A program made the translations under genes and the position numbers. A stretch of 64,000 nt of DNA from Prunus persica. Its lineage: Eukaryota > Streptophyta > Magnoliopsida > Rosales > Rosaceae. Shown piece after piece: positions 14,702 through 58,454 of this stretch. Below the pieces are notes generated by a model. The model made no database searches. It saw only the letters and a program-made list of their open reading frames with translations, and had not been told where the DNA came from. The DNA lies in NCBI RefSeq assembly GCF_000346465.2, contig NC_034009.1, positions 21,000,100 to 21,064,099 on the forward strand, in the 5' to 3' direction. Each line of letters begins with the position of its first letter. Positions within the stretch are counted from its first letter, which is position 1.

Positions 14702-14740
14702 GGAGTGGTTTTGTCGAATTTTTATGTTCTCTGCATTGTA

Positions 14741-14749
14741 TAGATTTTA
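14741..14749. repeat. Left 9-bp target-site duplication of the large MULE
   Basis: TAGATTTTA here is identical to TAGATTTTA at 33378-33386. A 9-bp duplication is diagnostic of Mutator-like elements. Confidence 0.95.
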
Positions 14750-14910
14750 GGGAAATAGCACTAAATGCCACCATTTTTATAATTGTAACTGAAAATACCA
14801 CCTTTTTTAAAAAAATTTGGAACTATAACCTATAAATATATATTTATTGTCCCCTTATTGCACACATATCACTTTTGCTGAAATTTTATTCTCTCTGTTT
14901 TGCTGAAGTT
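14750..14910 (+). repeat. Left terminal inverted repeat of the MULE
   Basis: The outer 50 bp match the right end with only a few substitutions. Farther in, the match weakens but keeps collinear words (CTATAAATATA, TTATTGTCC). It contains the inward-facing TATA box and leads into the CT-rich leader. Confidence 0.88.
14831..14840 (+). promoter_or_regulatory. TATA box of the left (Ulp1) promoter
   Basis: TATAAATATA within the inverted repeat is followed 45-100 bp downstream by a CT-rich leader (14890-15070, repeated 'tctctcgtcgctcagctc'). A donor-like CGACAG|GTACTG follows at about 15079. The mirror copy lies at 33287-33296. Confidence 0.6.
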
Positions 14911-16583
14911 CTCTCTCGGCTCTCTCTCTTGGCTCTGCTCTGTTTCTCTTCACTCTCCCGTGGCTTTGCTCTGACTCTCTCATCTCTCGTCGCTCAGCTC
15001 TGAATCTCTGGTCGCTCAGCTCTCAATCTCTCGTCGCTCAGCTCCGACTCTCTCTTCTCTCTTCCTCTCCCAGCGACAGGTACTGTTCATTGGCATTTTC
15101 TTACAGTTTAAGGGTTTCTCTGAAGTTGGTTTAGGGTTTATGCATTTCTCTGAAATTGGTTGAGGGGTTTGTTTGAAATTGGTTGAAGGTTTAGGGGTTT
15201 CTCTGAAATTGGTTTAGGGTTTTCATCGAAATTGGTTTTGGGGTTTCTCTGAAATGATCTTAGTATGATGATTCCTTGTTTCAAACAGTGAATGGGTTTG
15301 TTCTTTGTGGACTGATGCTTGCACTGCTGTTGTGTTGCTGTTGCTATTGCTGTCGTATTGTGTTTTTTTGCTAGTGTATTGCTAATGTAGTGATGTTGTG
15401 TTGGCATTTTAGTGCTGTTGTATTTTTAGTTTTATTATGGTATTATTATGGTTTTTGTAGCAGTTATTGATTGGTATTTGGTGGCTTAGTATGAGTCTTT
15501 ATGACCATTGCATTTAACCTTCTTACAAGTCTAATTGGTATCTATTTTGTTTATTGAAGATGATATCTAAAGTGTAAGACAATTAACCTGTGTATATCAT
15601 TTTGAACTTGTAAACTCCCAACCATATCATACTTTTTGTTTGAGAATAATGCTTGTTAATTCGACATATTTTTTTATAACTCTGTTTACTAAGTTTAGGG
15701 CTTGCATATTGGATATGGATGAGTTTTCTTTAGAACCATGTGTGGTGTAATATGAGTTCTTTAAAAGTTTGCTGTTTTGTGCTTGATCATTGTGTGCTTA
15801 AAAGAAAGCGGGAAATGAGTGAAGATGGGAACCTATCACCAGCAGGTGTGGTTTAGAGAAATGGGGACATTGATTTTGCTATAAGCTAACTGTTTAAGCT
15901 TTTGCTTTTCTTGTTTGTGTATGGATACTTAGAGAACTCTGTTTCTGAGGAGAACTTATAATTTTGTAATTGTACATGTCTTACAAACATTTTATACAGT
16001 TTTGATGGTTTATTTATGAATTTATCTTTGATATTTTGTTAAGAAAAAACTGAAGGGATGGTGCCAATTTCTTTTATTTTCTTACATTTGAAAGGAGGGC
16101 CATAGTAGAGTCAGTATTGTGGTTGCCACTAATTCATAGGATGTTCCATTACATTATACCTTGAAGTGAATCAATTGTTTCCCGATGTCTTGTTGTTTTC
16201 TAAAACTCTTTCTAGTCAGATAGATTTGTATCGTTAGTCTTGAATTGTTCTCAATTAGGCTTGTGCTACTGCACATTCCCATTCTAGCTGAAGCTGTCTC
16301 ATGATTAGATGGTGTGATTATATGGTGTGTTGAGAAATGTGTTTAGATATTATATTATGCAGGAGTGGTAGAGTACTGGGTGTCTTGAAACTTGGCTTTG
16401 AGCCATTAAATTAGGAGGTCAGTTGTAAATAGCTGGGGTTTTGTTTATGATATGTATTTTTTGTTTTTTTTTCACTTCATATCCTATAATAGGCTGTTGA
16501 TAAGTGGTGATTGTTTATTGCTTGTTATTGTCTAGATTGCAACCGACTGAAATTTTGTTTATAATATTGGCATGCAGGGAAAT
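14890..16583 (+). other. 5' leader and first intron of the MULE Ulp1 gene
   Basis: A pyrimidine-rich leader with near-tandem repeats of 'ctcgtcgctcagctctgaatct' (14985-15050) ends at CAG|GTACTG (about 15078). The acceptor TGCATGCAG lies at 16579-ish, just before the first coding ATG. Between them is about 1.5 kb of intron, including repeats of 'tctctgaaattggtttagggttt' (15118-15250). No other gene is seen. Confidence 0.55.
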
Positions 16584-19500
16584 ATGGTTGGTCAAATGAA
16601 GTTGATGATTGCAGAGGAACAAAAGTTCCAAGGGAAAGCATTGTCGCTATCCCATATGAAGACCGCAATCACTACGATAAAGGAGAAATTCACTGAACAG
16701 CAGCTGCAAATGTTTGAACAGAGTTGTTTTGGTCATCTCCTACGGATTGAGGACCTCAAGTGGACTTCTCCAATTGTCCACAGCTTGCTGCTCAGGAAAG
16801 CTGATCCCAAGACAGTTTCCCAACTGAACGGGATCAAATTCATTGTTGGCAATAAGGTCATCCAATTCACGGCGCAGCAATTTTGCATCGTGACAGGGCT
16901 AAGGTTTGGAAACCTTCCCTTTATTCCGATTCCCACTAATGAGAACTGCTCATTGAAACGGAAGTACTTTGCCAATGATAAAACTGTGAACCTGTTGGAA
17001 TTAGAAAAGGCCTTCCTCGAATGCGATAATGTGGACGATGTATTGAAGCTCGGATTCGTATACTTTGCTGTGTTTGTGCTGTTGGGCAGTGAAAAACATG
17101 TCCACATTGACATGCGATATTTGAAATTGGCGGAAGACCTTGAAGACTTTGGGAAGTATCCATGGGGTGCTGTGTGTTATGCAAAGACAAATGCGTCACT
17201 GCTGAGGGCACTTTGTGCAGATTACCAGCGAGTGAAAGTGCCCACAAAAACTGCAAAAAAAAAAAATCTGGAAAGAAACCAACAACAACGGCAACTGGTA
17301 GACCAAGAGAGTACCACCTTAAAGGTTTTGCCTATGCACTTCAAGTGAGCAAAGGTCCATTGATGTTGAAGTTAAATTGCATTTGTTTACAATGACTGAC
17401 CTTTTATTCCTCAAACCAGATTTGGGCGTATGAGGTATTTCCAGCGTTGGCTGCACTACATTTGGTGGTGCACGAAGATAATGCGTACATCCCTCGTTTA
17501 CTACATTGGATGAGCAATAGTTCGCCGCGTTTTTATGAGCTAATGAGCCAAGTATTCAAGAACCGTGAGGTTAGTTCAGTTTTTAATGATAATGTTAGGG
17601 ATATGAAAATATAATATAATTAGTTTACTGATATGTATATTGTATGTGTAAATTGCAGGTTGATGTGCAGCTTCTCCGGCCATCTGTAATGGACAAGCAG
17701 CAGCCGTATTAGACTTGGGGTGACAGTGCTGACGACACTGAAGAACTTGTTGACTTGTTGGGCGATGACGCTGAACAAAAAACCGGCACTTCTGCCTCTG
17801 TAGAAGAAAAAGATGAGGACATTGACGAAACTGCTAGCCTTCCGTCGTCTTCTAAGGCAAGCATTAATTTTGTTTCCAAGATATACATCATAATACAATA
17901 GGAAAAAAGTTGATGTATTGTTGCAATATAATTTGGAAATATTGTAACACTTGCGTTATAATTGAATGCAGGGTACAGTCGCGTCCACTGAGTTACGTAC
18001 TTTGAAGCGTGACTTTCAAAGGACAAAGGATGAATTGGCCAAAGTTGCCATATCAAATCAAGCGCTTCGCAATAGAGTGCATCAGTTGGAAGACATGGTA
18101 CGGAAGGAGTCATTGAAAGTTGAAAGAGAGTTCGAAAAAAATAAAAAGTGTGTGGAGGATTTTCGCAACACCCTGGCTTCAATGGAGCATTCTTTTAAGG
18201 TGGAGATAGAGCAAATGAAAATACGAAATCGTGGGGTGAATGAAGGTGGGGAAGGACATGAGGACCTCGGTAGTCCTCATATGAATGAAGGAGCAGCCGA
18301 TGACTTCTCGCCTCCACATGAGTATGTTAGTCCGCCTACAGAACCGGCAGTAATGGAAACACAAGTCCCCGCTGATGGAGCCGAACCTTCCGCAGCCATG
18401 GTAGTCGAAGAGGCAGCAATGACTGCTTCAGTTGCTGACTTAGAAGTGCATGAAGCAGCTGAGCAGGCACAATCCGAGAAGCTGCCTACCCCGGAAGATG
18501 TGGCGGGGTGTGACGAAATCTGCCAAAGAGTGTTGTTTTTGTTGCAAGATTGGAAAAAGATTCAGAGTATGCCATCGGGAGGTCCAATGAATCCTCCAAG
18601 TCTACCCACAGTTAGTATGGCTGGTGATGAAGAAGGGAGTTCGAGTGTTGAAGAAAAGGAAGTGGAAGGTAAAGGGTGCAGACAGAAGCGCCCGGCGCAG
18701 ACATTGTTGAGCCCATTTACTGATCCTTTGAGGAAGAAGAGGACGATGAGTGTGTCGGCCGCGATTGCAACCCCGCCATGTTTTGATCCAACAAAACCCG
18801 TGCCCATTGAAGATGTGAAGGCAGTAATAGAGTTTTGCACTGCCTGGAAAAACGATATCAGGTTAGGATTCTTTACCTTTGAAATCCAATCTTCATCCTA
18901 TTCTAGTATGTAGTCATAGACTAATGACAAAATGTAGAGTTTGCTTTAATATACTTATGTATTTTTGTAGGAATTATGAGATGAGTACAAAAGTAATCGT
19001 TGCAAGTTTGCCTTTTGTAGTGCGGAGGTGCAGCTGGAATCATTTTCAGTGGGCGCAGATTTTTTCTACAAACTTATCGATGACACGGAATGGGTTAGCT
19101 CAAGGGTAAGAATACACAAAGCTCTACTTTATTACAATAATTCAATTGTTTTCCCACCTTTTTTAATTGTAGAGTTGTATGAAATTGTGCTCATAGTATA
19201 TATGTCAACTTTCAGCACCTGGACATGGCAACCTTTCTTATCCGGAAAAGGCAACTCTCTCATCCGTTGGTATTTGGAACTGACTGGACAACGGCAGATT
19301 ATTGCTTGCAGGTAAACATGTTACCATGTTACATTCACTGGTTCATTTGCTTTCGGTTGTGATTTTCTAATATGCCTCCATTTCAATTTATGCAGCAATT
19401 TCTAGAGCCGTTGAAACCGACTGCGAAGAAACGTGGAGCGAAGAAGGCAGCTGCTTCAAACACCGTTGACCTTCCACCTAACAAGCTCAAGAATATACAT

Positions 19501-20065
19501 CACTATGTGCGCGGTACGTGGCAGACGGGTATGGCCAAGCTTGGACAAAAGTCCGGAAGGTCTATTTTCCATATAATCTTCGAGGGTCCCACTGGGTTGC
19601 AATCGAAATTGATTTCGTCAGACATACTGCAACTGTGTATGACTCCTATGTTGCGTATACCAAATCTTCGAGGCTGGTTACACTGCTGCACCCTATTAGC
19701 GATACACTAGCACGAGTGCTGTACGAGATGCACTTTTATGAAGATTCTGAGGTTGAAGAGGTTAAGCAAAAGGGGCTGCAGATGTCGAGGTTTACGCCAT
19801 TCTCAGTTTGCAGCATTGCAGGTCTTCCACAACAACAAGATGGGTAAGCTTTGTCAATTTAGTGTAGTTTATCCAAATTTTACATAACTGCAGTTCTAAT
19901 TTCCCAACTTATTGGCCTGACAGTACGTCTTGCGGAATTATAACCGTCAAATTCATCGAGCATCTTAGTGCTAGGATTTCGGTGGATAAAGTTGACCCTT
20001 TGAAGATCAAGTATTACCGACTGAAGCTTGCAATTGAGGGTTTAAGGGGGGAGGCATATTTATGA
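16584..20065 (+). pseudogene. DUF1985 / Ulp1-like cysteine protease gene of the MULE (degenerate)
   Basis: The product would be a C48-type SUMO-protease-like protein of the kind carried by some plant MULEs. Exon 1 (16584-17344) encodes the DUF1985-like N-terminal domain (IVGNKVIQFTAQQFCIVTGL; VYFAVFVLLGSEKHVHID). Exons near 17420-17569 and 17659-17856 follow. A coiled coil with an acidic Ala/Pro/Glu-rich linker lies at 17972-18861. C-terminal exons run from about 18971 to 20065. The papain-like triad motifs are visible: GSHWVAIEID (His), VYDS (Asp), TSCGIITVKF (Cys). The first coding ATG lies after the TGCATGCAG acceptor. Damage: a frame change at the A-run near 17252-17264, a TAG at 17710-17712, and frame changes near 18980 and 19505. 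One intron uses a GC donor (17857). Probably not translatable as a full protein. Confidence 0.85.
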
Positions 20066-21010
20066 GGTAAATGTCTTAATGTCCGTGAATTCACCTCACT
20101 ATGGACTTATGACTTGGGAATTCACTTTGCTCATAACTTATGTCAGGAACTCCTTCATATGAACATGCAGAAGCAGTGGCTAGTTAGTTTAGATATTATG
20201 GTGAGGTGTAATATTGTACAGTCTAGAAGCAGTGGCTAATTGCCTTACATGGCACACACACTGTTTCGATTTTGAAGGTTAACTATTTTGTACACCTCCA
20301 TATATGAATATAGTTGCTCTTTATGGATGCTTTTGTAGCCATTGTTCACATTTTTTTTCTGTGGTTTTGGGAATCTGTTACTGGACTTACTGAAGCATAC
20401 AACTCTGTTAACATTTCTCCATTTAGTTTTGACTTAGTTCGTTGTAAATAATTGATGCTCTTACTTTCATTAGTTTGATATGATTTCTTCTAATATGTGA
20501 TATATTTTTCTTCCCTTCATAATTGGACATAAGATAGGCATCTTAGTGCTGGAATGGACTGTTATGTTTCCGTAAACTACTTAATATTGATCTGTCTACG
20601 CTGAACTGCCCATTTTCCTTGCACAGAGATTCATATTTTTTCAAATTTTTTAGAAATTTATCATTTTGTAAAAACTCTGGTTTGTTAGAGTGAATGGTAA
20701 TATGAGCATGATAGCTGTGGATGAGATTTTCTACTGTTGATGAAAGCCAGTCCCTCCCTTCCTTTGTCCTTCTTGATCTTACAAGGGCAAGCAAGCTGAT
20801 TGGGGTTACAAGATTTGATACCTATCTTAAACATTGTGAAGCTGATATGAGAAACATTGCTAACAGATTCTTGGTCCTGTCTATTTTAGTGAGTGGCAGA
20901 AATTTTTATGATTACTCTTAATTAGTTTTAGGTGATGGGGGTTACAAGATTTGATACCTATCTTAAACATTGTTTTATGCTTGTTTGGGTAAATGATTCT
21001 TCAGTACCTG
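20066..21010 (+). other. MULE interior, unidentified; includes a 36-bp direct repeat
   Basis: No recognised gene. GGGGTTACAAGATTTGATAC (start of a 36-bp unit) occurs at 20802-20837 and again at 20937-20972. Short open frames on both strands at 20543-20921 have no recognisable family. The stretch leads directly into the MATE fragment and may include its more degraded upstream exons or introns. Confidence 0.4.
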
Positions 21011-23348
21011 TCTATCGTTGAGCAACATTCCTATCAGTCAAACATATTCTCCAGATGTCAAACATGAGCTGTTCATGCTTTCTTTACCTGCAATTTTGGG
21101 TCAGGCCATTGATCCCTTAGCACAGCTAATGGAGACTGCTTACATTGGTAGATTGGGTATGTTTTCACTCCTTTAAATGAGTTGAACGACTAATATTTGT
21201 ATAATGCATTGAACTTTGGAGCTTTTATTCAATGTTTTTGGCTTTTTTGTTTTTCCATAGGTTCTGTGGAGTTGGCTTCAGCTGGTATTTCAATGAACAT
21301 CTTCAATTATATATCAAAGCTATTTAATATCCCTCTCCTCAGTGTTGCTACATCTTTTGTTGCTGAAGATCTTGCAAAGAGTGAAAGTATAGCTTCTACT
21401 TCAGGTGAAGTTTAACTTTTTTTAATTACTTGCTCATCTCTGTTGGACATCAATTTTGGTTAGGGTTCATGTCTAAATTAGAGCATAGGTGACTTAAAAT
21501 TTCTCCATTCGTAATCTAAATTCGGCTAATCATTGTACAGAAAATGGTTGGCTAGGAGACATTACTAATGGTAAACCCGAACGTACTAATGGAGTAACTG
21601 AGAGAAAGCAACTATCTTCAGTGTCTACAGCTTTACTATTATCAGTGGGGATTGGGATTTTTGAGGCCGTAGCCTTGTGTTTGGGATCTGGATTGTTTCT
21701 GAATATGATGGCCATATCAATGGTAGGTTCCCTGATCTAAAATTACAGCTCATACTGATTTGTTATCTGCCTGTTGTTATCTTTGTTTACATAAACATAC
21801 AAACATATGTTTTCTGTGTGTACTGTGTGTACTGTGTACATACATGTTTACATATTTATGTGAATAATTACTGTACAATTTTGTAGGTCTAGTGTATGTG
21901 TGGTTACTTAACAGGTGATAGTATAACTTTCGTGTAATTTTATTAATTTCTGTGGGTCTGGGTGGGGGGAGCCATATGTTTTGTGTTTTTTCTTCTCTCA
22001 AGCTCTTGGCTTTGAATTTTAAGCAAGATTTTTCTTTTTTCTTGAATATCACAGGACTCACCTATGCGCATTCCTGCAGAACGGTTTCTTTCACTAAGAC
22101 CATTTTCTTACAACCACACATGTACACACCTCTATGTGTGTGTGTGTGTGTGTGTGTTACTGGTCTGTTATTCTCGTATAATGTTTTTATAACTTTGTCC
22201 CCAACTAGTTGGTTTCTATTTGTCTTTAGTTAAGCTTGAGTGGTCCATCTGGTTAATTGATGTATTTTGCTTTGTGCAGGTATTGGTAATCTCCTAGCTG
22301 CATTTTTATTACCCATCCTTATGTATTATTTTGGTTTGGGTGTAACTGGTGCAGCCCTTTCCACTGTTATATCTCAGTATGTGATTTTCAAAACAGTTTC
22401 TGTTAATATTCCTTTTTTGCTTTACTTCGCAAATGAACATATTTTGGAATTTCTGTTTTCAGATACACTGTCACCTTTTTAATGATCTGGTTTTTAAATA
22501 AGAGAGCTATACTATTGCCTCCAAAGGTGGGATCATTGAAATTTGGTGGATACATAAAATCTGCTCAGTTCCTTTTCTTTTTCTTTAAACTTTTACCCTC
22601 TCATATATCTGAAAATATAAGTCCTTTTTTTCAAGTGTTCTGCTTCAATTATTTGCTTGACTATCAACACTATCATAATATTTGACTTTTTTCGTTTTCT
22701 GATTGAGCAGTGCTTGTATCTGGACAGTGTGTGTCTTAATGTTTCATTTTGTCTTTGTGATGCTAGTTAAACCTTGAGATAATTCTCTCTTGTCTTCCTT
22801 TTCAAAGTTCTTTCCCTAATTGCTTTTGTTTTCAACTCTGGGATGATACAAGTGGTTTTCTTCTTGGAACAACTCTTGCTGTTCTTACTACCTTGACATT
22901 GGGAACATCAATGGCTGCTCGTCAAGGTCCAGTAGCTATGGCTGCTCATCAGATATGTATACAAGTTTGGTTGGCTGTATCCCTTCTAACTGATGCAATG
23001 GCTGCATCTGGTCAGGTATGCTCTCTCTCATTTTTTTCATCGCAGTTCGTATGTACTCATTTCCATTTGGTGATCCAGATCAATCAGTGGGTGAAGTCTA
23101 ACTTTCAGTTTTACTTCACCCCGAGTGTGGAATTCTTTTCCTATTTTAACTGGACCAAATTTCACAGATTTTTGTCTGCAAATTAGGGTTTTGTGATGAA
23201 GTGTGTGTCTTTGCATTTGACATCAAATTTACACAGCTAAAATGTGTTTGTTTGTAGGCCCTGATTGCTACTTATTTATGTAAAGGTGATTGCTACTTAT
23301 TTATGTAAAGGTGAATACAAAATTGTGAAAGAAGTTGCTGACTTCGTG
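21010..23348 (+). pseudogene. Captured MATE-family transporter fragment (DTX45-like)
   Basis: This is part of a multidrug and toxin extrusion carrier of the plastid DTX44/45-EDS5 group. Exons with splice sites: about 21010-21156 (ILGQAIDPLAQLMETAYIGR), 21261-21404 (VELASAGISMNIFNYISKLF), 21541-21722 (ERKQLSSVSTALLLSVGIGI), 22055-about 22090 (DSPMRIPAERFLSLR), 22280-about 22377 (GNLLAAFLLPILMYYFGLGV), 22464-about 22556 (FLMIWFLNKRAILLPPK), about 22853-23017 (GTSMAARQGPVAMAAHQICI), and about 23260-23340. The exon normally between FLSLR and GIGNL is missing, the donor after GGYIKS is not GT, a 25-bp tandem duplication breaks the frame at 23262-23311, and the transit peptide and last transmembrane segments are absent. 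Introns are kept, so capture was at DNA level. Confidence 0.88.
23262..23311 (+). repeat. 25-bp tandem duplication in the MATE exon
   Basis: TGATTGCTACTTATTTATGT plus AAAGG occurs twice head to tail (23262-23286, 23287-23311). It duplicates codons of the IATYLCKG segment and shifts the frame. Confidence 0.9.
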
Positions 23349-24724
23349 TTATAATTACATGGATGCTCCCAGATCTGCCTGATCTTTGGTGTAGTTTCGT
23401 TATGTTGCATATCAGAAAAAGAACCAACTGAATTCATCGCACCATCCAAAAATTAAATTTAAGTCATGCCACTTTCTTGCAGGGTCTAAAAGAAATGGCT
23501 GAGAGTTTGTCTGGAACTTTGACTAAGTCAACTGATGCTATTGGGCAAGACGATATTGAAGGTCCAGGAATGAAACCAACAAACCTCCTGAGGTTTGAAT
23601 AAGAACTCTGTTATCTAGTATTTACATCATTCTTGAACATTGTAATGGAGCCCATCTGCTTGTATGCATATGTGATGATTTCTGCTGAGGTTCCCATTTA
23701 TAGCATGCCTCTTTTTTCTTTTTTACTTTGCTTTTTTACTTTTTGCTGGTCATATGTGCGTGGCCGGTAGATGCATTTGGCACTATGAACTAACTCGGTG
23801 GCAGTTACAAATTACCATAGGTCTTAATTATGGAACTGCCCTTCATCAATGGCTTCATCTGTACTTAACCTAGTTGTTTTTGCATGTTGGTCTCAACCAA
23901 GTGTTGATTGCAATATTCTAAACAAGATGACCATATACTGTTATTTGATGTAGGTGTACGTATGAGATGGCTTAGCTTTAATTAGTTTAGTTGTTCCAAG
24001 TTTTATGTACACAATCTCACAGTAACTGCCGAGTTGTTTTTCACTTCTCGTATTTCTCCGTGGTATTTATTCGCTCATATTCTGCTTATGGAGATGAAGT
24101 AAAAATTATTGTGGAGCTTATAGCATGTTTAGTTTATTTTGTGGGCATGACTTATGTTCTTGATAACCCTTTTTCTTCAAAATCTCTAGTTTCTGTCATC
24201 TGAAGTCTTTTCAGTCATTCAGGTCAAAAAATCTCCAACCCACTTTGGAATGGCAGAACAAGTGTTAGAAGGCCATAAAGAAATAGCCACAAGTTCTGAT
24301 ACATGTACATAAAAAGTGTGAAGTTCAAACCTACAGACGACAAGGGAAGAAGGAAGCTCTGTCCCATAGAGGTGATCCATGGAGTAAACATGTTTATGCC
24401 ACCATTCCAAATTGACTGGCCCCTCGAATTGCACAATGGCAATATGCTCTCCTCCTGCGACTCTAAAGTAGGCAAAACACTGGTGTTGGAAGGACATGTA
24501 ACAAGGTTATTGTGCATTCCATTGTACAAGCTTGAATGGATTTTATTTTCTGTTGTATTTGGCCCTTCTCTTTTGAAGCATGCCAAAAATCATCCTGGTT
24601 TCGTCATATGTGGTTGTGGCCAATTCATACCGTGGATGTTGGATTTTTGTACCAATATTGATAGCTGCCTTCTTTGTGAGTACAGTAATTGAGGGAGAGA
24701 AATACTTTCCTTTTGAATATGATT
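23312..24724. other. MULE interior with unidentified exon-like pieces
   Basis: 23484-23602 is an exon-like frame after a TTCTTGCAG acceptor, reading GLKEMAESLSGTLTKSTDAI and ending LLRFE-stop. It looks like the last exon of a gene I cannot name. From 24220 to 24720 both strands have open frames (for example minus HQCFAYFRVAGGEHIAIVQF), none recognised. These may be further captured host-gene pieces. Confidence 0.35.
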
Positions 24725-24824
24725 NNNNNNNNNNNNNNNNNNNNNNNNNNNNNNNNNNNNNNNNNNNNNNNNNNNNNNNNNNNNNNNNNNNNNNNNNNNN
24801 NNNNNNNNNNNNNNNNNNNNNNNN
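24725..24824. other. Assembly gap (100 N)
   Basis: A run of 100 N, likely a gap of fixed placeholder length, inside the MULE. Confidence 1.
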
Positions 24825-24939
24825 CCAGCTATCATTTGAAAAGTCCACAATCATCCATGGTAATATAAGGATGGATAACAATTGTCGTGTCCGTCATAGT
24901 TGAATTCAGGATTACTTTCAACGAAGTGGAGACTTATTA

Positions 24940-25190
24940 GACCACATGCCATTGACATACGATATAACAGCAATATTAGGTCAATATCAATATAAGTGCA
25001 CTATAGAGGCAATATTAGAGCAATATAAGGGCAATACGATAGCAATAGTATTCCACTATAGATACAATAGGGTGGCAATATGCATACACTATCTACACTA
25101 TATACAGGCAATACGAAGGCAATATACATGCAATAGAACTACAATATTAAGTCAATCTACATACAATACATACACATTACAGACAACATT
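24940..25190. repeat. CAATAT-type degenerate repeat, copy 1
   Basis: About 25 irregularly spaced occurrences of CAATA(T/C/G) separated by 6-12 bases ('gcaatattagagcaatataagggcaatac'). The same pattern recurs at about 28500-28590, 29806-29835 and 32465-32580, always within the right half of the MULE. Confidence 0.8.
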
Positions 25191-25308
25191 TCACCCATGC
25201 AAAAGAAATCGCCACCGAACCTTAACAATACTATCCCGCGAAGGGAAATGAAGGCAACAAAAGATCCATGTACTCAGGTGAGATGAACTGAAGCAGCACT
25301 CACCGTTA

Positions 25309-25953
25309 CTACAGGTCCATCAAAAGATCCATGTCTTTGTCCTTTCTCCTCGCTGCATGTACGAGGCTATGATGAGCCATTCCCTCAGCACCCATATTCA
25401 GCACCAGCCAGACACCAGCTACATCAATTTCACTCCAATTGTAGTCTGGTGAGATGACCGAAGCATAATCTCGGAACATTTCGAAGCCGTTGTTGAAACA
25501 TTCAGCCATTTCATGGTTATATTCTTCAGATTGTGTGAATTTTTCGACGGCATTTTTCTTTCTCTCTTCCAATTTCAACTTCAACGACTCTAACTCTTTG
25601 CTCCAACTTTTTGCTTTTAGAGTTTGCTTCACCTCTCCTGCGTATGCTTTGTTCAACTTGTTCGCCAAGTTTCCCATAACTTGGCCATGAATATCGCACT
25701 TACTCTCCCACCAATCCATTGCCTTTGACATATATTGGAGGTGGTGCTTGAAGGCAGAGATTTGGTCAAGCGGATCATTGATCTCAGCCTCACTTCCAGA
25801 TGAAGTGGGATCATGATTGGGAGTCCGAGGTGGAGATGGGAATGGCACATGCCACGGCTGGTCCCCCGGGTAACTGACATGCTCATTTGGAGGGCGTACA
25901 TCCGACATCTTTAAGTATTGCTGGGGACAATTCATAGCTGTTGCCTGCAACAA
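25309..25953 (-). CDS. Hypothetical coiled-coil protein of the MULE (214 aa)
   Basis: An open frame from ATG 25953 (or 25932, MNCPQQYL; 25905, MSDVRPPNE) to 25309. The N-terminal 60 residues are Pro-rich and probably disordered (WHVPFPSPPRTPNHDPTSSG). Residues about 70-160 look helical and charged (ELESLKLKLEERKKNAVEKF), followed by CFNNGFEMFRDYASVISPDY and a basic end. No known domain recognised. The segment around NGFEMFRDY resembles ESGFELFRKFEK of the + strand frame at 27836-28228, suggesting a shared ancestor or module. It may be an accessory protein of the element. Confidence 0.5.
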   Translation of the reverse strand: MLQATAMNCPQQYLKMSDVRPPNEHVSYPGDQPWHVPFPSPPRTPNHDPTSSGSEAEINDPLDQISAFKHHLQYMSKAMDWWESKCDIHGQVMGNLANKLNKAYAGEVKQTLKAKSWSKELESLKLKLEERKKNAVEKFTQSEEYNHEMAECFNNGFEMFRDYASVISPDYNWSEIDVAGVWLVLNMGAEGMAHHSLVHAARRKDKDMDLLMDL

Positions 25954-26326
25954 AACAAATAAAGCTACATTCAGTCTCCAGTTGTAAACGACAACATCGT
26001 TAGCTTTAGTGGAGAATATTTGTGGTGCACTAAGACTAATTACCTTTCCCGTTAAGAAGGTGCCTCTGTTGCAGTTCTATATAGGAAGGTTCAGTTATAT
26101 GTACGAACTACTATGAAGTATATTGCGTGTTTAGTTGGTGCATTCAATTGATGGGATTGCAAACTACACCATTAACTCCTTGGCTGCAATTTACAGCAGT
26201 ACAACATTACATTAACAACAAAAAAAATGGCTTCCAAACGACAAAAAAGCAAACCTTAATGGGACATTGTAAATTGTGGATTTCAACCCAAAATAGGACT
26301 ATGTCACTAAGCATTTATTGCGAATT
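25954..26326. other. MULE interior, nothing recognised
   Basis: AT-rich sequence upstream (on the minus strand) of the 214-aa frame. It may contain that frame's leader. No repeat or gene is clear. Confidence 0.4.
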
Positions 26327-27480
26327 TCAGAAAAGAAAATTGGAAATTACCGAAATTGGAAAATTGGAAAATTGGACAATTGAAAAAGTGAAAACTTGGA
26401 AAATGGGAAATAAGGAAACTTGGTAAATTGGAAATAGAACAAAAGGAAAATTGGAAAATCGGAAATACGAAAAAATGGAAACTTGGAAATTTGGAAATTT
26501 GGAAATTTGGACATAGGAAAAAAGGAAAAATTGGAAAGAGGAAACTAGGAAATAGGATAAAATGACAGTTGAAAAATTGGAGAAAATTGGAAAATAGGAA
26601 AATAGGAAAAAGGAAAAAAGGACACTTGGAAAATTGTAAATTTGGGTAATTGGAAAATAAAGCAACTTGGAAAATTGGAAAATTGGAAATTGGACAAAAG
26701 GAAACTTGGAAAATAGGAAAATAGGAAAAAGGAAGAAATGGAAACTCTGAAAAGAAGAAAATTGGAAAATTCTAAATAGGAAATAGGAAAAAAGGACACT
26801 TGAAAAATAGGCAAATTCGCAAATTGGATAATTGAAAATTTGGAATATTGGATAACTGGATAATTGCAAACTAGGAAATAAGGCAACTTGGAAAATAGCA
26901 AAATTGGAAATAGAACAAAAGGAAAGTTAGCAAATTGAAAAATTGGAAAATTGGAAAAAGGAAAAAGAAAGAAACTTAGAAAATAGTCCAATTGGAAAAA
27001 AGATAATTGGATAATTGGACAAAAACTGAATTTGAAAAATGGAAATAGGAAACAGGGACACATGGAAAATAAGAAAATTGGAACCGAATTGAAATTGTGG
27101 AAATGGGAAAGACAATTACCATATTGGACAATTTTATTTACTTTCTGAATTAGGCAAAGTAGGCAACTTTTTTTAATTACATAATGGGAAAATGGGAACA
27201 TTGAAAAATTGGAAAACTGGAAATATAACAAAAGGAAACTTGGGAAATTGCACAATAGGAAAATAGGGAATAGGCAAAAATAGGCAAAAATAATGAGAAA
27301 TTTGAAAATTGGATGACACATGGAAAATAGGAAAATATGAATAATGGAAAAATGGAAACGAATTGAGATTGCTGAAATGAGAAATAAGACAATAACCATA
27401 TTGGTCAATTTGAATGAGTTGGTCAATTAGGCAAATAGGCAAATCCCTTATTTGAATTAAATAATGGGAAAATGACCAAG
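26327..27480. repeat. Long degenerate GGAAAATT-type array
   Basis: About 1.15 kb of near-continuous variants of an 8-base unit, mostly TTGGAAAA and ATAGGAAA, purine-rich on the + strand with almost no C. The Phe/Ser/Pro-rich open frames on the minus strand here are by-products of the repeat. A short more ordinary stretch interrupts at about 27110-27180 and 27380-27460. Confidence 0.93.
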
Positions 27481-27540
27481 TACGGAACGTCCAACATACA
27501 ACTATATTACAAAAAGGCATACAGTGAACTGGCTAATAAC

Positions 27541-27650
27541 TCCCGCCCAATACTATCCCGCCTAAGACTCCCGCCCAATACTATCCCGCCTAAGACTCCC
27601 GCCAATCCCTCCCGCCAATTACTCCCCCTAATCCTCCCGCCAATAACTCT
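27541..27650. promoter_or_regulatory. Cluster of seven TCCCGCC motifs
   Basis: A unit CTCCCGCCCAATACTATCCC then GCCTAAGA is present twice head to tail, followed by three more TCCCGCC words. TCCCGCC is the core of E2F sites (TTTCCCGCC type). The cluster lies about 190 bp upstream of the 130-aa frame and about 1.15 kb upstream of the XRCC3-like copy. Regulatory function is inferred only. Confidence 0.4.
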
Positions 27651-27835
27651 CTGAGTTACTCCAGGTCATTAAAATCTGCCTATATTAATCAACCCAGTTG
27701 TTTGAAATGAAAACTTCCATCACATTAACTCCTGCTTGCAGCCATTACCTTCCCCACTGATTTCACTCACATTGCATTTAGTCCCCCTTTTTTCCAATTA
27801 AGTTGTACACCAGGCTACAATAAATATCGAAGACC

Positions 27836-28228
27836 ATGGACCATAACCTCACACCAAACCCAACGCTTTCAATTACTGAAGGAGGGAAGATTGAAACACA
27901 AGCCAAGTCACCTAATTCACTCCCTGCAGACTTGGTCCATGGCATGCAGCAATGTCGAGGCAATACGATGTTTTGGAAAAATCTTCATGCAGACATAGTT
28001 TCAAAAATTGTGGAGGGCCAAGGTAGATGGGGTGTCATAAAAAACCGCACAATTCGCTCTCGTTATCATGCTCGCATGCATCTCCTACATATAAAGGCAA
28101 TGAAAGCAAAAATTGAAAGTGCCCCTGCCACTGCAATTATGGTATTCAAGGAATCAGAAGCAATGGCCAAATTGAAGAAAGAAGAAGTGGAAAGCGGATT
28201 TGAACTTTTTCGTAAGTTTGAAAAATAG
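27836..28228 (+). CDS. Hypothetical 130-aa protein of the MULE
   Basis: Open from ATG 27836 (MDHNLTPNPTLSITEGGK) to TAG 28228. The N-terminal 40 residues are polar. The middle is basic (WGVIKNRTIRSRYHARMHLL) and the end is a charged helix (AMAKLKKEEVESGFELFRKF). No domain recognised. The C-terminal module resembles NGFEMFRDY of the opposite-strand frame at 25309-25953. It could be a MULE accessory ORF or a fragment of a larger gene. Confidence 0.45.
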   Translation: MDHNLTPNPTLSITEGGKIETQAKSPNSLPADLVHGMQQCRGNTMFWKNLHADIVSKIVEGQGRWGVIKNRTIRSRYHARMHLLHIKAMKAKIESAPATAIMVFKESEAMAKLKKEEVESGFELFRKFEK

Positions 28229-28479
28229 TGGATCCGGCAGGATCCTGGGCCAACATCACTGTGGCCGGGGTCATGAATTTCATGGGTCGCGGTCACCGCA
28301 CTTGAAGACTATGCAACTTCGAATTTGTCAACACCAGGGAAATGAAACTATGAGGCGGCCTATTTTTGTATTATGTAATGATGGGGTGGCCTGTTGTTGT
28401 ATTATGTAAGTTTGGAATTAGGATTTTATGGAATGAAGCCTCTTTTTGTATTTGTGCGTATACAGTTTATCGGTGTCCA

Positions 28480-28590
28480 GTTCAGTGGCGATATAGCAGC
28501 AATAACTATACAATAAACATGCGTATAATGGCAATATTATGTCAATAAGAGTACAATAGAGTGATGATAGAGTTACAATATGATCCTATT
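28480..28590. repeat. CAATAT-type degenerate repeat, copy 2
   Basis: Irregular CAATA words ('ggcaatattatgtcaataagagtacaatag') of the same type as 24940-25190. Confidence 0.6.
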
Positions 28591-28741
28591 ACAGTACGTA
28601 CTGCATCAGAATGTTTTTTAAATTAATTGGTCCAAAAAAATACTAATAAATAAACAAAAAAGTAATTACAACTTGGAAAAAGGATGAATTATACATCCCT
28701 TAAAAGACATATGGCCTACAGTACAGACCTTCAAAATGAAC

Positions 28742-28761
28742 TCTATATATATATATATAAT
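28742..28761 (+). promoter_or_regulatory. TATA-like run before the XRCC3 copy
   Basis: CTATATATATATATATAATG lies 45-65 bp before the likely start at 28806. It could act as a TATA box or be a plain (TA)n microsatellite. Confidence 0.3.
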
Positions 28762-28805
28762 GCATGCCTTGTAGCACCATCACATCTCCCCTAAATTACA
28801 CAAAC

Positions 28806-29676
28806 ATGACACCCCAAAACCTCATGCTCCTTCCTCTTTCAACCCCTAAATTATCCATTGGATGCCCAATACTAGATCACTGCTTGGGGGGTGGGATACC
28901 CTGCAACTCCATAACAGAATTAGTAGGGGAGAGTGGTTCCGGGAAGACGCAGCTTTGTCTCCAACTTACGGTACAAGCTCAGCTCCCACCCTCACATGAG
29001 GACTAGGGGGCTCCTCCGTCTACATATTCACAGAATTCAGCTTCCCATTTCGTCGATTGCAACAACTAGGCAACCTTTATCATGCATCATACCCCAACTT
29101 AATAAGGTTGGAGCCATTGGAAGACATATATGTTCATGGTGTTCATGATGCTCAACAACTCATCCATGTCCTTGGAGACATAGAAGCATTTATTGCCATT
29201 GATCACACCCGCCTACCTGTGAAACTCGTTGTCATTGATTCCATTGCTGCATTGTTCCGATCACAGTATCAGACAACACCGGCAGATTTGAAACGGCGGC
29301 CTGAAATGTTCTTCAACATATCTGGAACATTGAAGGGTTTAGCAAATAAGTTTGGGTTGGCGGTGGTTGTGACCAACCAAGTGGTGGATTTTATTGGGCC
29401 ACATGATGGAGTGAATGGCGTGAGGTTGGGAAACTTGGAGTCCCTGGACACATCAGGCAGACGGGTGAGTCCAGGTTTGGGACTGGCTTGGGCACATTGC
29501 ATAAATTCAAGAGTGTTCTTGGCAAGACATGAGCAATCTATTGAGGTTGAAGTTCGTAATGCTCCTTCAACAAGTATATGTAGTCAAACACACAGGACAT
29601 TTCACCTTGTATTTGCCCCACATCTGGCCTATGCATCGGCCAAATTTGTAATCAGAAAAGAAGGTATAGTCGGAGT
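28806..29676 (+). pseudogene. XRCC3: Intronless XRCC3-like RAD51-paralogue copy with one frameshift
   Basis: XRCC3 pairs with RAD51C in homologous recombination. The likely start [12 protein letters not shown] (28806) lines up with the short plant XRCC3 N-terminus. Then follow [14 protein letters not shown], Walker [18 protein letters not shown], Walker B KLVVIDSIAALFRS, FGLAVVVTNQVVDF, GRRVSPGLGLAWAHCINSR, and FVIRKEGIVG at the gap edge. The frame breaks once: after QLPPSH (about 28997-29002) one base appears lost, making TAG at 29003-ish, and the rest (29003-29676) is open in the next frame. No intron interrupts any of it. The C-terminal end lies in or at the N gap (29677). Apart from that single indel the ATPase core is complete, so it is a recent acquisition, or the indel is a sequence error. 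Confidence 0.9.
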
Positions 29677-29803
29677 NNNNNNNNNNNNNNNNNNNNNNNN
29701 NNNNNNNNNNNNNNNNNNNNNNNNNNNNNNNNNNNNNNNNNNNNNNNNNNNNNNNNNNNNNNNNNNNNNNNNNNNNNNNNNNNNNNNNNNNNNNNNNNNN
29801 NNN
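29677..29803. other. Assembly gap (127 N)
   Basis: A run of 127 N that removes the last codons and 3' side of the XRCC3-like copy. Confidence 1.
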
Positions 29804-29966
29804 TAAACGTACAATATAATAGCAATCTGTCAGGAATACAACATGTTGTAGCAATGCAACCGAAATTATGCAAATTTAAAAGAATTCCCATTCAACATAA
29901 CACGAAACCTACCACGAATAAAAGTAGAGTTTACATGACCTACCAAAGCAACACAAATCATATTGT

Positions 29967-32432
29967 CTAAGATACATTGCGCAATGGAATATTGTTTTTA
30001 CAAGTGCTTTTATTGTGGCCTGCGGAACCGCACCTTGAGCACTTTCTTCTAATGGTGCCATCTCCTTGTGAGGGAATTCTTATCTTCTTTCGTCTGCCTG
30101 GCATGACCCTTGCCATGGGAGGCAGCACAACTCGACTTCGAACATCTTCAGGAATATCCCACATTCCGTGAGGTTGTACTGGGTAGATGCTATCCAAATA
30201 AGCATCCATCCAGGTTTTCCGAGTGTAATACCGAGAAGCCTTTGAGTATACATTTACTTTCAAGAAGCGGCAAACTGCAACTACATGCTTGCAAGGTAGC
30301 TGCTCAAGCTGAAACTTTCTACAACTACAACTGTTGTTCGTCAAATCTACGAGGCCGTCCTTATCACCGTCCAAAACATTAAACTGTGCATGATTTAATT
30401 TAACCACATTCATCCTTGTAGCATCCTCCAACCTGTTCCTCAACTTCTTCTCTCCGAAATTAGGGCACAATGTTGTTGTGCAATTCAAAGCCAACTCACG
30501 ACGTTCGATGAACCATTTCACAAGGAGATTAACAATTTCCCCTATCAAATGAACCATTGGCAGCATCCTTGCAAACCTAAGGACTGAGTTGATTGACTCC
30601 GCAATATTTGTTGTCATTACATTGTAGCGGCGTCCATCCATGTGAGCTCTAGACCACTTATGTGACCCTGCCTCTTCAAGATATTGAGCAACGTGTTCCT
30701 TTCGCTTGATGTTGCGAAAATGACAATCAAATTCAGCAATGGAATAAGATTTCGCAGCCTGCTCAAAGTGCATAAGTATGTGATCACGCTTTTTCAACTT
30801 GCAAATGCGTTTCATGTTCCCCTTCATATGATAAAAGCATATGCCATGTTGTGCAGTTGGAAAAATTTTGTTCCACACATTCTCTATGCTAACATTGCGA
30901 TCAGAAATAATAACAAGATTGGGACACTCACCAATGGCTTCATGAAGTTTAGTGAAAAACCAATGCCATGATGCATCCGTCTCCAAATCCCCGATCCCAA
31001 AAGCAAGAGGATATATATTTCGATTACCATCGAATGCATTTGCTACAAACATAACACCCTTGTACTTGGATTTTAAATGAGTGGCATCCACGGCTATCAC
31101 TGAGCGCATGGAAGAACGGAACCCTCTAATACATGCGCCAACCGCCATAAATAAATACACAAAGTGATTGTTCTCATCAGTTTGGATGTGTGTTTTTGTG
31201 CCGGGATTCATACGCTCCAATTCATAGCAATAAGCTGGAAGGATATAATATGCCTCCTCCGCTGATCCTCTAATGGACAATAGAGCTAACTCCCTTGCTT
31301 TCCAAGCTTTCGAATAATGGATGGTGCAACCAAAGCTGTGTTTCACATCTCTCATAATGTCACTTGGTGTGTATATTGTCCGAGAATCCTTCAACTTCCT
31401 TTTAAGTGAAGTGGCTACAAGTGCTACGGTTGCTTGACGATGCTTGTCACTTACGAACCTCAAATCACATTCATGGACAGTTGTACACCTCACAATCATG
31501 AAGCTGTATTCTCCAATTCTCGATGCTCGGACCCGCCATGGGCATGGACGTTGACAACAAACCACAAGCAACCTCTTAGTGCAAGAGAATTGCACCTTAA
31601 ATTCAAAGTGGCCTCTTAATGTCGTGAACCGTAACTCCGTCAACAATGCTTTCTTACTAGAGAAAATTTGCCCAACTGTAATTTTCGGATTCCAATCACT
31701 TCGTGAAAACCCGCTATCCAAATATGCTTCTTCATCATTTACACCGGCTTCATTGTACCAGTTTTGTTCACCCATTTGACTCCAATAATGTTGACGAGTG
31801 GGTTCAGATTCTCCTCCTAAACGCATTATTGGCAACTGGGTAGCTGTATTCAAGCAGCCCAAATTATGAGGGGCAGAGTACACTGACACTTCATTTCTTT
31901 CAGTATCATTATCACCACCATGCATCTCCTCCACCTCGCTAAAATCAATCATATCCATAAAATCTGTCCCTACTTCACCTCCCACGTCAGTGACATTTTT
32001 ATTATTCCAAGTTACTTCATTGCTTTCAACAATGGCAACTGAAGAATGACCCATCCGACTACTATCTGTCGTGATATGCGTACTATGAACTACATCATTT
32101 GTCAGTCCTTTATCTTCTATACTCACGAGTAAGGGAGCTAGTTTTGAAGGTGTTACCTCGGAATTGTACTTCATAAAAAAATTGACATCATCATCGTCCT
32201 CAATCTTTATGTGCTTCCACTCATTTGAGGCCACCAAAACTGAGAATTTTAAGCAAACCTTGTCTTCCCTGCTGTTTATATTACCAATCTGATGCACACG
32301 GTCCAACAGTTCAGCAAATTTGATAGTCCGTGGAACTATTAAGCCTTTTGAGTCACCCCCTTCGTATTTACACATCTTCTTCGAGGTTGCCCATTTTCCA
32401 TTGTAGCACACGAGAATAACAATTGTCTCCAT
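29967..32432 (-). CDS. MuDR-family transposase (mudrA-like), open
   Basis: Cut-and-paste transposase of the MULE, acting in the nucleus on its inverted repeats. The frame is open from ATG 32447, but GGTCAG|AAATGG is a good acceptor, so METIVILV at 32432 (821 aa) is the likelier start. Order (numbered from 32447): PB1-like N-terminus (about 5-115); acidic linker; DNA-binding region (about 265-340, FEFKVQFSCTKRLLVVCCQ); MULE DDE domain with VDATHL (Asp about 454) and IISDRN (Asp about 516), then GICFYHMKGNM; SWIM zinc finger CSCRKFQLEQLPCKHVVAV (about 707); CCHC knuckle CSRCGSAGHNKSTC (about 798-811). Full length and without internal stops, unlike the Ulp1 partner gene. Transcription would start in the right inverted repeat. 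Confidence 0.93.
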   Translation of the reverse strand: METIVILVCYNGKWATSKKMCKYEGGDSKGLIVPRTIKFAELLDRVHQIGNINSREDKVCLKFSVLVASNEWKHIKIEDDDDVNFFMKYNSEVTPSKLAPLLVSIEDKGLTNDVVHSTHITTDSSRMGHSSVAIVESNEVTWNNKNVTDVGGEVGTDFMDMIDFSEVEEMHGGDNDTERNEVSVYSAPHNLGCLNTATQLPIMRLGGESEPTRQHYWSQMGEQNWYNEAGVNDEEAYLDSGFSRSDWNPKITVGQIFSSKKALLTELRFTTLRGHFEFKVQFSCTKRLLVVCCQRPCPWRVRASRIGEYSFMIVRCTTVHECDLRFVSDKHRQATVALVATSLKRKLKDSRTIYTPSDIMRDVKHSFGCTIHYSKAWKARELALLSIRGSAEEAYYILPAYCYELERMNPGTKTHIQTDENNHFVYLFMAVGACIRGFRSSMRSVIAVDATHLKSKYKGVMFVANAFDGNRNIYPLAFGIGDLETDASWHWFFTKLHEAIGECPNLVIISDRNVSIENVWNKIFPTAQHGICFYHMKGNMKRICKLKKRDHILMHFEQAAKSYSIAEFDCHFRNIKRKEHVAQYLEEAGSHKWSRAHMDGRRYNVMTTNIAESINSVLRFARMLPMVHLIGEIVNLLVKWFIERRELALNCTTTLCPNFGEKKLRNRLEDATRMNVVKLNHAQFNVLDGDKDGLVDLTNNSCSCRKFQLEQLPCKHVVAVCRFLKVNVYSKASRYYTRKTWMDAYLDSIYPVQPHGMWDIPEDVRSRVVLPPMARVMPGRRKKIRIPSQGDGTIRRKCSRCGSAGHNKSTCKNNIPLRNVS

Positions 32433-32464
32433 TTCTGACCATGACAAAACAACATTTCATTAAC

Positions 32465-32580
32465 CCAATATAACCACAATAACCATACAATACAATAGCA
32501 ATATAAACACAATATAACAGCAATATAGAAGCAATATAATGTCAATATAACAGCAATACGACAGTAAAATAAGATGAACA
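32465..32580. repeat. CAATAT-type degenerate repeat, copy 3
   Basis: Words such as 'caatagcaatataaacacaatataacagcaatat' with the spacing seen at 24940-25190. Confidence 0.75.
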
Positions 32581-32734
32581 CAACAGCACTACACCAGTAA
32601 CACATTAGAATCACACTATACAGATCTACTACATCAAATGGAAAATCCCAAGTTTCAAGATTCACATATCCAGACCAATCTAAATGCAATTGGTACAAAC
32701 CCAGATGAATGAGCATGAATATTCAACAAAACCT

Positions 32735-32918
32735 AACCCAAAGAAATTAAAGCCAAAACGAATTTAACACAAACCCAAACAATCAAACTATAACCCATTT
32801 CACATAATCCCACTGATATTAACAAAAACCCAAAGAAATTAAAGCCAAAACGAATTTAACACAAACCCAAACAATCAAACTATAACCCATTTCACATAAT
32901 CCCACTGATATTAACAAA
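32735..32918. repeat. 92-bp tandem duplication
   Basis: The unit starting AACCCAAAGAAATTAAAGCC is present twice head to tail with almost no differences, in the leader intron of the transposase gene. Confidence 0.9.
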
Positions 32919-33214
32919 ATAACCATCAACACTACCTTTTCGAGGTCGGCAATCCACTAGAGCTTCAAGGTTGCAAGCAGCTATTCAGAAGACATAGCTA
33001 AAGGGAGGGGTTCGCGATTCCAAACAGAGAGCAAGAGATCGAATAGGGGAGAAACAGACATAACGAAGCTAGAGAGAGAAAGAGCTGCGCTATGAGAAAG
33101 AGAGCAAAGAGAGAGACAGAGAGTTGTGCTAGAGAGAGAGAGAGAGCCAAGAGAGACGCAGAGAGCTGTGATAGACATATACCAAAGAGAAAGAGAGTTG
33201 TGCCAGAGAGAGAG

Positions 33215-33377
33215 AGAACTGTGTGAGCTAAGAGAGAACAAAATTTCTGGACTTGTGAAAAAACTGCAATCAGTGGACAATAATTTTATATTTATAGGTG
33301 ATAGTTGTACAAAAATTGGGAAGGAGTGGTATTTTTAATTACAATTATAAAAATGGTGGCATTTAGGGCTATTTCCT
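33215..33377 (-). repeat. Right terminal inverted repeat of the MULE
   Basis: Reverse complement of the left end. The outermost base differs (A against G) and the next 45-50 match with few changes. TATAAATATA on the minus strand lies at 33287-33296. Confidence 0.88.
33287..33296 (-). promoter_or_regulatory. TATA box of the right (transposase) promoter
   Basis: TATAAATATA on the minus strand within the inverted repeat, the mirror of 14831-14840, facing the transposase gene. Confidence 0.6.
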
Positions 33378-33386
33378 TAGATTTTA
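33378..33386. repeat. Right 9-bp target-site duplication of the large MULE
   Basis: TAGATTTTA, identical to 14741-14749. Confidence 0.95.
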
Positions 33387-57583: not shown

Positions 57584-57592
57584 TAAATAGAA

Positions 57593-58445: not shown

Positions 58446-58454
58446 TAAATAGAA

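What the first reader, a model, noticed from the sequence alone, without database searches (positions are those of the whole stretch)
14741..33386. An 18.6-kb Mutator-like element with intact ends and an open transposase
Seen: a perfect 9-bp duplication TAGATTTTA at both borders, near-identical inverted termini, an open 821-826-aa MuDR transposase and an Ulp1-type gene. Known: MULEs duplicate 9 bp, and Kaonashi-type MULEs carry Ulp1-like genes. Inferred: the element is young enough to keep its target duplication and may still be autonomous. Its size and cargo are unusual.
Basis: partly seen in the sequence, partly recalled or inferred. Interest (0 to 1): 0.9.

Follow-up and report, generated by a model that had tools for sequence, protein, structure and literature searches.

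The report
Peach transposon carrying a DNA-repair gene
This is a real 18.6-kb jumping gene of the Mutator type in what is almost certainly the peach genome, and its family carries along a full-length copy of XRCC3, a gene for repairing broken chromosomes, which seems to have been kept in working order while the element spread.

Summary
TAGATTTTA occurs only twice in the window, exactly at the borders. The outer 52 bp of the ends match at 48 positions, but identity over 148 bp is 79%. At six paralogous sites in the same genome the two flanks meet with exactly one 9-bp target (sequences in 86, 87, 89, 90). Sibling copies bridge both N gaps. The genome is almost certainly Prunus persica.

Beside the MuDR transposase and DUF1985/Ulp1 gene lies XRCC3 (a RAD51 paralogue), frameshifted here but free of stops in 22 of 32 full-coverage copies, and a Prunus-only orphan gene. 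Of 43 transposase loci at ≥74% identity, 40 have XRCC3 within 2 kb, tail to tail; 0 of 12 more distant ones do. On the in-element stem XRCC3 shows constraint: omega 0.42 (0.21–0.87); substitutions against cherry and apricot relatives avoid conserved positions.

Best reading: a young TIR-MULE family that keeps a host-derived repair gene, probably to steer repair after its own excision; function is inferred. 'Kaonashi-type' is not supported: those MULEs lack TIRs.

The parts
14741..14749 (.). left target-site duplication TAGATTTTA
   Evidence: single copy in paralogous empty sites
14750..14896 (+). left terminal inverted repeat (about 147 bp)
   Evidence: 40 scored genome copies of 280 candidates
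16563..17345 (+). DUF1985 exon of the Ulp1-type gene
   Evidence: E 1.1e-14; within-family omega 0.40 (0.22-0.78)
17966..18910 (+). 315-aa open frame without clear domain, probably part of the same Ulp1-type gene (inferred)
   Evidence: same 315-aa frame open in two of the ten siblings, shorter, longer or missing in the rest
19545..19841 (+). Peptidase_C48 (Ulp1) domain part, followed by a GTAAGC donor-like site
   Evidence: (E 2.5e-6)
24725..24824 (.). assembly gap 1 (100 N; 12 bp in six siblings)
25312..25908 (-). 199-aa orphan gene, found only in Prunus among named records, long predicted helix
   Evidence: (41 hits, 35 named, all of these Prunus), (mean pLDDT 59)
26335..26958 (.). 8-bp low-complexity tandem array inside the element
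28805..29676 (+). XRCC3 (RAD51 paralogue) gene, frameshifted near 28998 in this copy; its last codons fall in gap 2
29677..29803 (.). assembly gap 2 (127 N; 128 bp in six and 127 bp in one of seven siblings)
29967..32456 (-). MuDR-type transposase gene, single open frame (829 codons; 821 aa from METIV)
32735..32919 (.). perfect tandem duplication of about 92 bp between transposase and right end (one or two copies in siblings)
33231..33377 (-). right terminal inverted repeat
   Evidence: 40 scored genome copies of 291 candidates
33378..33386 (.). right target-site duplication TAGATTTTA

Best explanation
A full-length member of a family of TIR-bearing Mutator-like DNA transposons (full-length copies 17.4-18.7 kb) known here only from Prunus. 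It inserted into a copy of another dispersed repeat with a 9-bp target duplication.

Layout: Ulp1-type gene (+), coiled-coil-like orphan (-), XRCC3 (+), transposase (-).

SHOWN: the insertion; the family; the tail-to-tail pairing of XRCC3 with this transposase lineage; retention of full-length stop-free XRCC3 frames; reduced non-synonymous change on the in-element stem.

INFERRED: the transposase cuts the element out and pastes it in as in other MULEs. The element acquired XRCC3 from a Prunus host gene after its lineage split from the 67-68% transposase relatives. The XRCC3 protein, with RAD51C as in cells, pushes repair of the excision break towards homologous recombination, so that the donor copy is restored and copy number rises. 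The Ulp1 gene and the orphan would help by countering silencing or SUMO control.

Anatomy and family membership are about 95% likely; a real XRCC3 role for the element about 45%.
For: Borders, TSD and empty sites. Domains. Sibling copies with the same layout. Perfect TSDs in 4 of the 10 fetched siblings. XRCC3 next to the transposase in 40 of 43 loci at >=74% and 0 of 12 below: unchanged by the 40 weaker XRCC3 matches checked. 22 of 32 full-coverage element-type XRCC3 matches have no stop. In-element stem omega 0.42 (0.21-0.87; 1.0% of bootstraps >=1). Substitutions avoid conserved XRCC3 columns (peach element vs P. avium 5/90 against 34/203, p 0.0055; vs P. armeniaca 5/90 against 36/203, p 0.0031), while two pairs of dead copies compared with each other show little avoidance (p 0.18, 0.43). 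A second, very young subfamily (99.0-99.9% over the terminal 1.5 kb).
Against: No expression, protein or transposition data. Within the window's own subfamily XRCC3 omega is 0.83 (0.49-1.55), not different from neutral, against 0.64 (0.47-0.90) for the transposase. The four component estimates of the stem omega run from 0.29 to 0.56, and two of their four intervals include 1. P. avium against P. armeniaca (p 0.15) and the near almond and unnamed relatives (p 0.14-0.36) show no significant avoidance of conserved columns at the 0.95 threshold. The window copy itself, and 10 of 32 full-coverage XRCC3 matches, are broken. Of six transposase loci at 74-85%, one has no XRCC3 beside it.
Confidence: 0.6

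Rival explanations
1. XRCC3 is a passenger: a captured gene in an autonomous master lineage that hitch-hikes, with frames still open only because the bursts are recent.
For: Within-subfamily omega 0.83 (0.49-1.55); capture of host sequences by MULEs is common (PMC2528002 passages). The young subfamily is nearly identical, so open frames there say little.
Against: Element XRCC3 differs from the peach C5 gene at dS 0.33 with no indel in 293 codons and omega 0.37 (0.23-0.55); in-element stem omega 0.42 with 1.0% of bootstraps >=1; substitutions against the cherry and apricot relatives avoid conserved columns; 5 of 6 divergent loci (74-85%) already carry it at the same spot.
Confidence: 0.35
2. 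The XRCC3 serves the plant: element copies, and perhaps the chromosome-5 gene itself, supply XRCC3 function to Prunus, and selection on the host keeps frames open.
For: No XRCC3 as close to other Rosaceae as expected was found in peach: best locus C5:9.81 is 62% to Fragaria while Malus, Rosa and Fragaria are 71-83% alike; a decayed XRCC3 relic lies at C6:12.00 Mb; the Prunus clade sits on a long branch.
Against: The C5 gene is free of stops and its own branch has omega 0.33 (0.20-0.55), so the host has a probably working gene; the relic is about equally far from all XRCC3s (39-47%), so its meaning is unclear; the flanks of the C5 gene were not read.
Confidence: 0.12
3. The two ends belong to different elements, or the 18.6-kb span is an assembly chimera across the N gaps.
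For: Two N gaps; TIRs only 79% alike over 148 bp.
Against: Siblings with the same order, bridged gaps and their own TSDs; paralogous empty sites with one target copy.
Confidence: 0.01

Closest known systems
Mutator-like elements (MuDR/MULE superfamily, TIR type)
   Same: 9-bp target duplication, long TIRs, MULE-type transposase with DNA-binding and SWIM domains
   Different: 17-19 kb with four genes including a full-length XRCC3; a review states that no Pack-MULE of the first survey exceeded 7 kb (PMC6431247, passages)
Kaonashi / KIU-carrying VANDAL MULEs of Arabidopsis
   Same: carry an Ulp1 (C48) domain gene beside the transposase
   Different: those are non-TIR MULEs (PMC13317346, passages); this one has TIRs, a DUF1985 domain and XRCC3
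ULP1-containing MULEs of melon, rice and grapevine
   Same: MULEs with an ULP1-like region
   Different: no XRCC3 mentioned in the grapevine passages seen (PMC2528002); the melon/rice paper was seen only as a citation
Plant Helitrons carrying an RPA-type domain
   Same: a DNA transposon that keeps a host-like DNA recombination/repair protein (mentioned in PMC6431247, passage)
   Different: rolling-circle element; RPA, not a RAD51 paralogue
Cellular plant XRCC3
   Same: full-length RAD51-family protein; Walker [10 protein letters not shown] and Walker B LIVIDS (motif names recalled) in intact copies such as P0001
   Different: 78% identical to the peach C5 gene product; multi-copy and mobile
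Falling Stone (FaSt) Prunus Mutator MITE
   Same: Prunus-specific Mutator-type element (PMC12071656, PMC13359793, passages)
   Different: 349 bp with 82-bp TIRs; its sequence was not in the text held, so relation untested; none of the 30 TIR loci (this one included) showed a matching opposite TIR within the 3.2 kb held

Membership tests
Mutator-like element (MULE superfamily) | about 9-bp target-site duplication | tested here: met
Mutator-like element (MULE superfamily) | MULE/MuDR transposase | tested here: met
   PF10551, PF03108, PF04434, PF00872 above cut-offs
Mutator-like element (MULE superfamily) | long terminal inverted repeats (TIR type) | tested here: met
   79% over 148 bp, 48 of the outer 52
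Kaonashi / KIU VANDAL MULE | Ulp1 (C48) domain gene | tested here: met
   partial domain (profile 81-167 of 217)
Kaonashi / KIU VANDAL MULE | no TIRs | tested here: not met
   definition from PMC13317346 passages
Kaonashi / KIU VANDAL MULE | VANC-type anti-silencing protein | not tested
   no VANC sequence was compared
Pack-MULE | non-autonomous element with gene fragments and no transposase | tested here: not met
   own open transposase; the cargo is a full-length gene in siblings
XRCC3 (RAD51 paralogue) | Rad51 domain, best match XRCC3, Walker A and B | tested here: met
   (best solved structures XRCC3); the window copy is frameshifted
XRCC3 (RAD51 paralogue) | binds RAD51C / acts in recombination repair | not testable with these tools
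   needs experiment
Autonomous element | catalyses its own transposition | not testable with these tools
   open frames and young copies only

The most novel reading that the evidence does not exclude
A DNA transposon family of Prunus encodes its own working RAD51 paralogue (XRCC3) and uses it to channel repair of its excision breaks into homologous recombination, so that 'cut and paste' becomes effectively replicative. A bolder extension, not excluded, is that the present single-copy XRCC3 of Prunus (chromosome 5) is itself a re-domesticated transposon copy that replaced the ancestral gene.
Probability: 0.4. Interest if true: 0.88.

Novelty: new variant of a known kind. Interest (0 to 1): 0.72.

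Why it matters
Cut-and-paste elements can gain copies if the host repairs the empty site from a template (established knowledge). An element that carries a conserved strand-exchange helper would be a direct handle on the open question of how MULEs bias that repair. It also warns that some 'DNA repair protein XRCC3 homolog' records in Prunus (P. avium P0005 and P. mume P0008) group with the transposon copies, not with the chromosome-5 gene.

Tried and rejected
Chance TSD or chimera: rejected by empty sites and siblings.

FaSt MITE as a small partner: no short element was seen at 30 TIR loci; the FaSt sequence is not in the text held; left open.

XRCC3 as host gene outside the element: rejected by the tail-to-tail pairing in 40 of 43 loci.

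C6 relic as the dead ancestral XRCC3: inconclusive, 39-47% to all ten proteins compared.

Structure of the orphan: low confidence (pLDDT 59), so no fold search was made.

Literature for an XRCC3-carrying or RAD51-carrying transposon: searches listed nothing on it in the rows shown (20, 12, 12 and 12 of 81, 970, 35 and 13 papers). Only open-licence PMC papers are held, only listings were seen for these, and repeat libraries such as Repbase were not available.

Rows left out before a count: one search used 55 of the 59 transposase matches (the four others are second pieces of listed loci) and 61 of the 101 XRCC3 matches; the other 40 were checked against the 15 transposase loci without XRCC3 and changed nothing. 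One of the 12 distant loci (C4:17.11) has an XRCC3 6.1 kb away. One search left out one sibling (c8_12.656, broken by N).
Full report
WHERE. The window is G000:C1:21000100-21064099 of a genome of 227.5 Mb in 192 contigs.

THE OBSERVATION. TAGATTTTA flanks the element at 14741-14749 and 33378-33386 and occurs nowhere else in the window. Random 9-mer pairs match at about 1e-5. The outer 52 bp of the two ends match at 48 positions, but over 148 bp identity is 79%. The best proof is independent of the borders: both flanks are parts of a dispersed repeat (40 scored matches each). Among the listed matches, 21 loci hold parts of both flanks less than 80 bases apart. At six the spacing is exactly that of one 9-bp target; at the other 15 it differs, five of them lacking the junction altogether, so those repeat members differ locally. 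Two of the six were read (C3 and C16) and give gcattcta-tagatttta-aacgagat. A pattern search with the joined junction found five places with 1-3 mismatches and none for the reversed control. These are paralogous empty sites: they prove the insertion and its target, but not its age in peach accessions.

THE FAMILY. A search with the left TIR gave 40 scored copies of 280 candidates, the right TIR 40 of 291. Of the 40 left ends, 23 pair with a right end of the same strand within 40 kb: nine pairs, this element included, are 17.4-18.7 kb apart, two are over 31 kb (nested or mispaired), and twelve are shorter forms. I fetched 20 kb from ten siblings. Six run nearly full length with the same order, mostly at about 96-98% identity; the others are deletion forms, interrupted or broken. 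Target duplications: perfect 9-bp matches in 4 of the 10 (c4_22.94, c8_12.616, c7_1.92, c2_0.18); 8 of 9 in c7_5.52, but in a run of A and so weak; none in c1_29.25 and c7_1.29 (the latter with a damaged left end); three not determined because the right end was not found by the pattern. Siblings bridge both N gaps: 12 bp for the 100-N gap in six of six; for the 127-N gap 128 bp in six and 127 bp in one of seven aligned to both edges. The transposase search gave nine full-length frames without a stop among 59 matches, the window copy included. Seven of these nine have a full-length stop-free XRCC3 frame beside them; the two others are the window copy (frameshift) and C4:18.98 (one TGA). A second subfamily (L015, L022-L028, L030) is 99.0-99.9% identical over the terminal 1.5 kb in all 36 pairs, so bursts are recent.

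THE GENES. Transposase: MULE, DBD_Tnp_Mut, SWIM. Ulp1-type gene: DUF1985 exon and C48 part, whose reading stops at GATGG-GTAAGC, a splice-donor-like site; the exon with the catalytic cysteine was not identified. Orphan: 199 aa, 41 relatives, of which 35 are named and all of these are Prunus; a long helix at low confidence. XRCC3: 28805-29676, frameshifted near 28998 and running into gap 2. Its best solved-structure matches are XRCC3 proteins.

XRCC3 BELONGS TO THE ELEMENT. Of 55 transposase loci, 43 are >=74% identical to this one; 40 of these have XRCC3 within 2 kb, all 40 tail to tail. None of the 12 more distant loci (52-53% and 67-68%) does, one having an XRCC3 6.1 kb away (the 40 weaker XRCC3 matches change nothing). 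Five of the six loci at 74-85% already have it, so the gene has been aboard through several rounds of divergence. Of 32 element-type XRCC3 matches covering at least residues 3-292, 22 have no stop (my count from the 101 matches, the chromosome-5 gene left out; start codons were not checked in the unfetched ones). Two of the 22, c7_5.52 and c3_11.87, begin at residue 3 and carry T-to-M in Walker A.

SELECTION. The chromosome-5 gene (L051) and the element gene align without an indel over 293 codons; dN/dS 0.37 (bootstrap 0.23-0.55). On the stem from the divergent in-element copies to the recent subfamily omega is 0.42 (0.21-0.87), with 1.0% of bootstraps at or above 1. The four component estimates run from 0.29 to 0.56, and two of their intervals include 1. 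Within the recent subfamily omega is 0.83 (0.49-1.55) for XRCC3, 0.64 (0.47-0.90) for the transposase, 0.40 (0.22-0.78) for the DUF1985 exon and 1.01 (0.45-3.87) for the orphan; most such copies are broken, so values near 1 are expected, but they give no support. As a protein-level check, substitutions between the peach element and its P. avium and P. armeniaca relatives avoid the 90 columns conserved in 81 non-Prunus XRCC3s (ratios 0.33 and 0.31, p 0.0055 and 0.0031). P. avium against P. armeniaca (0.59, p 0.15) and the three closest relatives (0.38, 0.38, 0.69; p 0.31, 0.14, 0.36) are not significant. Two pairs of dead copies give 0.74 and 0.92 (p 0.18, 0.43). I read this as real but moderate constraint inside the transposon.

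ORIGIN. In a tree of 23 proteins the chromosome-5 genes of peach and almond (support 100/97) and the element group (100/97) are sisters on a long branch away from Malus, Rosa, Fragaria and other plants. The element group holds almond, apricot, cherry and mume proteins, so the capture is older than these species' split if those proteins are element-borne; that was not checked at DNA level. Peach has no XRCC3 as close to Fragaria as Malus is: best 62%, against 71% for Malus-Fragaria. A decayed relic at C6:12.00 Mb is 39-47% to all ten proteins compared. Whether the chromosome-5 gene is the ancestral locus is open.

MECHANISM. The transposase and TIRs predict ordinary MULE transposition (established knowledge). 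Cellular XRCC3 works with RAD51C to help RAD51 onto chromosomes (title of PMC5470734, seen only in a listing). An element-borne copy would plausibly favour recombinational repair of the gap left by excision, restoring the donor copy. Plant Helitrons with an RPA domain (PMC6431247, passage) are a parallel of keeping a repair-type protein. No function was shown here.

KNOWN OR NEW. TIR-MULE: yes by TSD, TIR and transposase. Kaonashi/KIU: no, because those lack TIRs (PMC13317346 passages). Pack-MULE: no. No paper describing an XRCC3- or RAD51-carrying transposon turned up in the rows shown by searches (listings only), and a 2026 review of Prunus transposons has no occurrence of XRCC3 in its main text. 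Repeat databases could not be searched, so the family may already have a name there.

Noticed in passing
window 14141-14740 and 33387-33986: Both flanks of the element are parts of a dispersed repeat (40 scored matches each), so the element is nested in another repeat.
   Followed up: partly
G000:C5:9812095-9812970 (L051) and C6:12003707-12004363 (L055): The only full-length stop-free XRCC3 frame in peach that is not of the element type (78%) sits on a long branch (62% to Fragaria), and a decayed XRCC3 relic lies on C6; the ancestral XRCC3 may have been replaced.
   Followed up: partly
proteins P0005 (P. avium), P0008 (P. mume): Records named 'DNA repair protein XRCC3 homolog' group with the transposon copies, not with the chromosome-5 gene, so they may be transposon genes annotated as host genes.
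   Followed up: partly
L015, L022-L028, L030: A very young subfamily (99.0-99.9% over 1.5 kb), likely the most recently active.
   Followed up: partly
G000:C7:3522764, C1:17679249 (about 4.3 kb); C2:29044270, C2:9921905, C2:92104 (about 6.45 kb): Recurrent short forms with both TIRs; the two 4.3-kb ones hold a match to only the last 126-129 residues of XRCC3 and probably are non-autonomous derivatives.
   Followed up: partly
G000:C8:12616492 and C8:12656320: Two left ends 40 kb apart share the same flank and 9-mer TTATTTTTA, pointing to a local duplication or an assembly repeat.
   Followed up: no
window 57591-57785, 58259-58446, 60316-60512, 61017-61216: Repeats of about 190 bp in both orientations (74-84% alike) clustered in 3.6 kb, possibly ends of another element.
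   Followed up: no
window about 10000-10075, minus strand: A SWIM zinc-finger match (E 3e-7) at the edge of the stretch searched, perhaps a remnant of another MULE transposase.
   Followed up: no
window 26335-27474: A low-complexity array of 8-bp units inside the element gives long spurious open frames on the minus strand.
   Followed up: no
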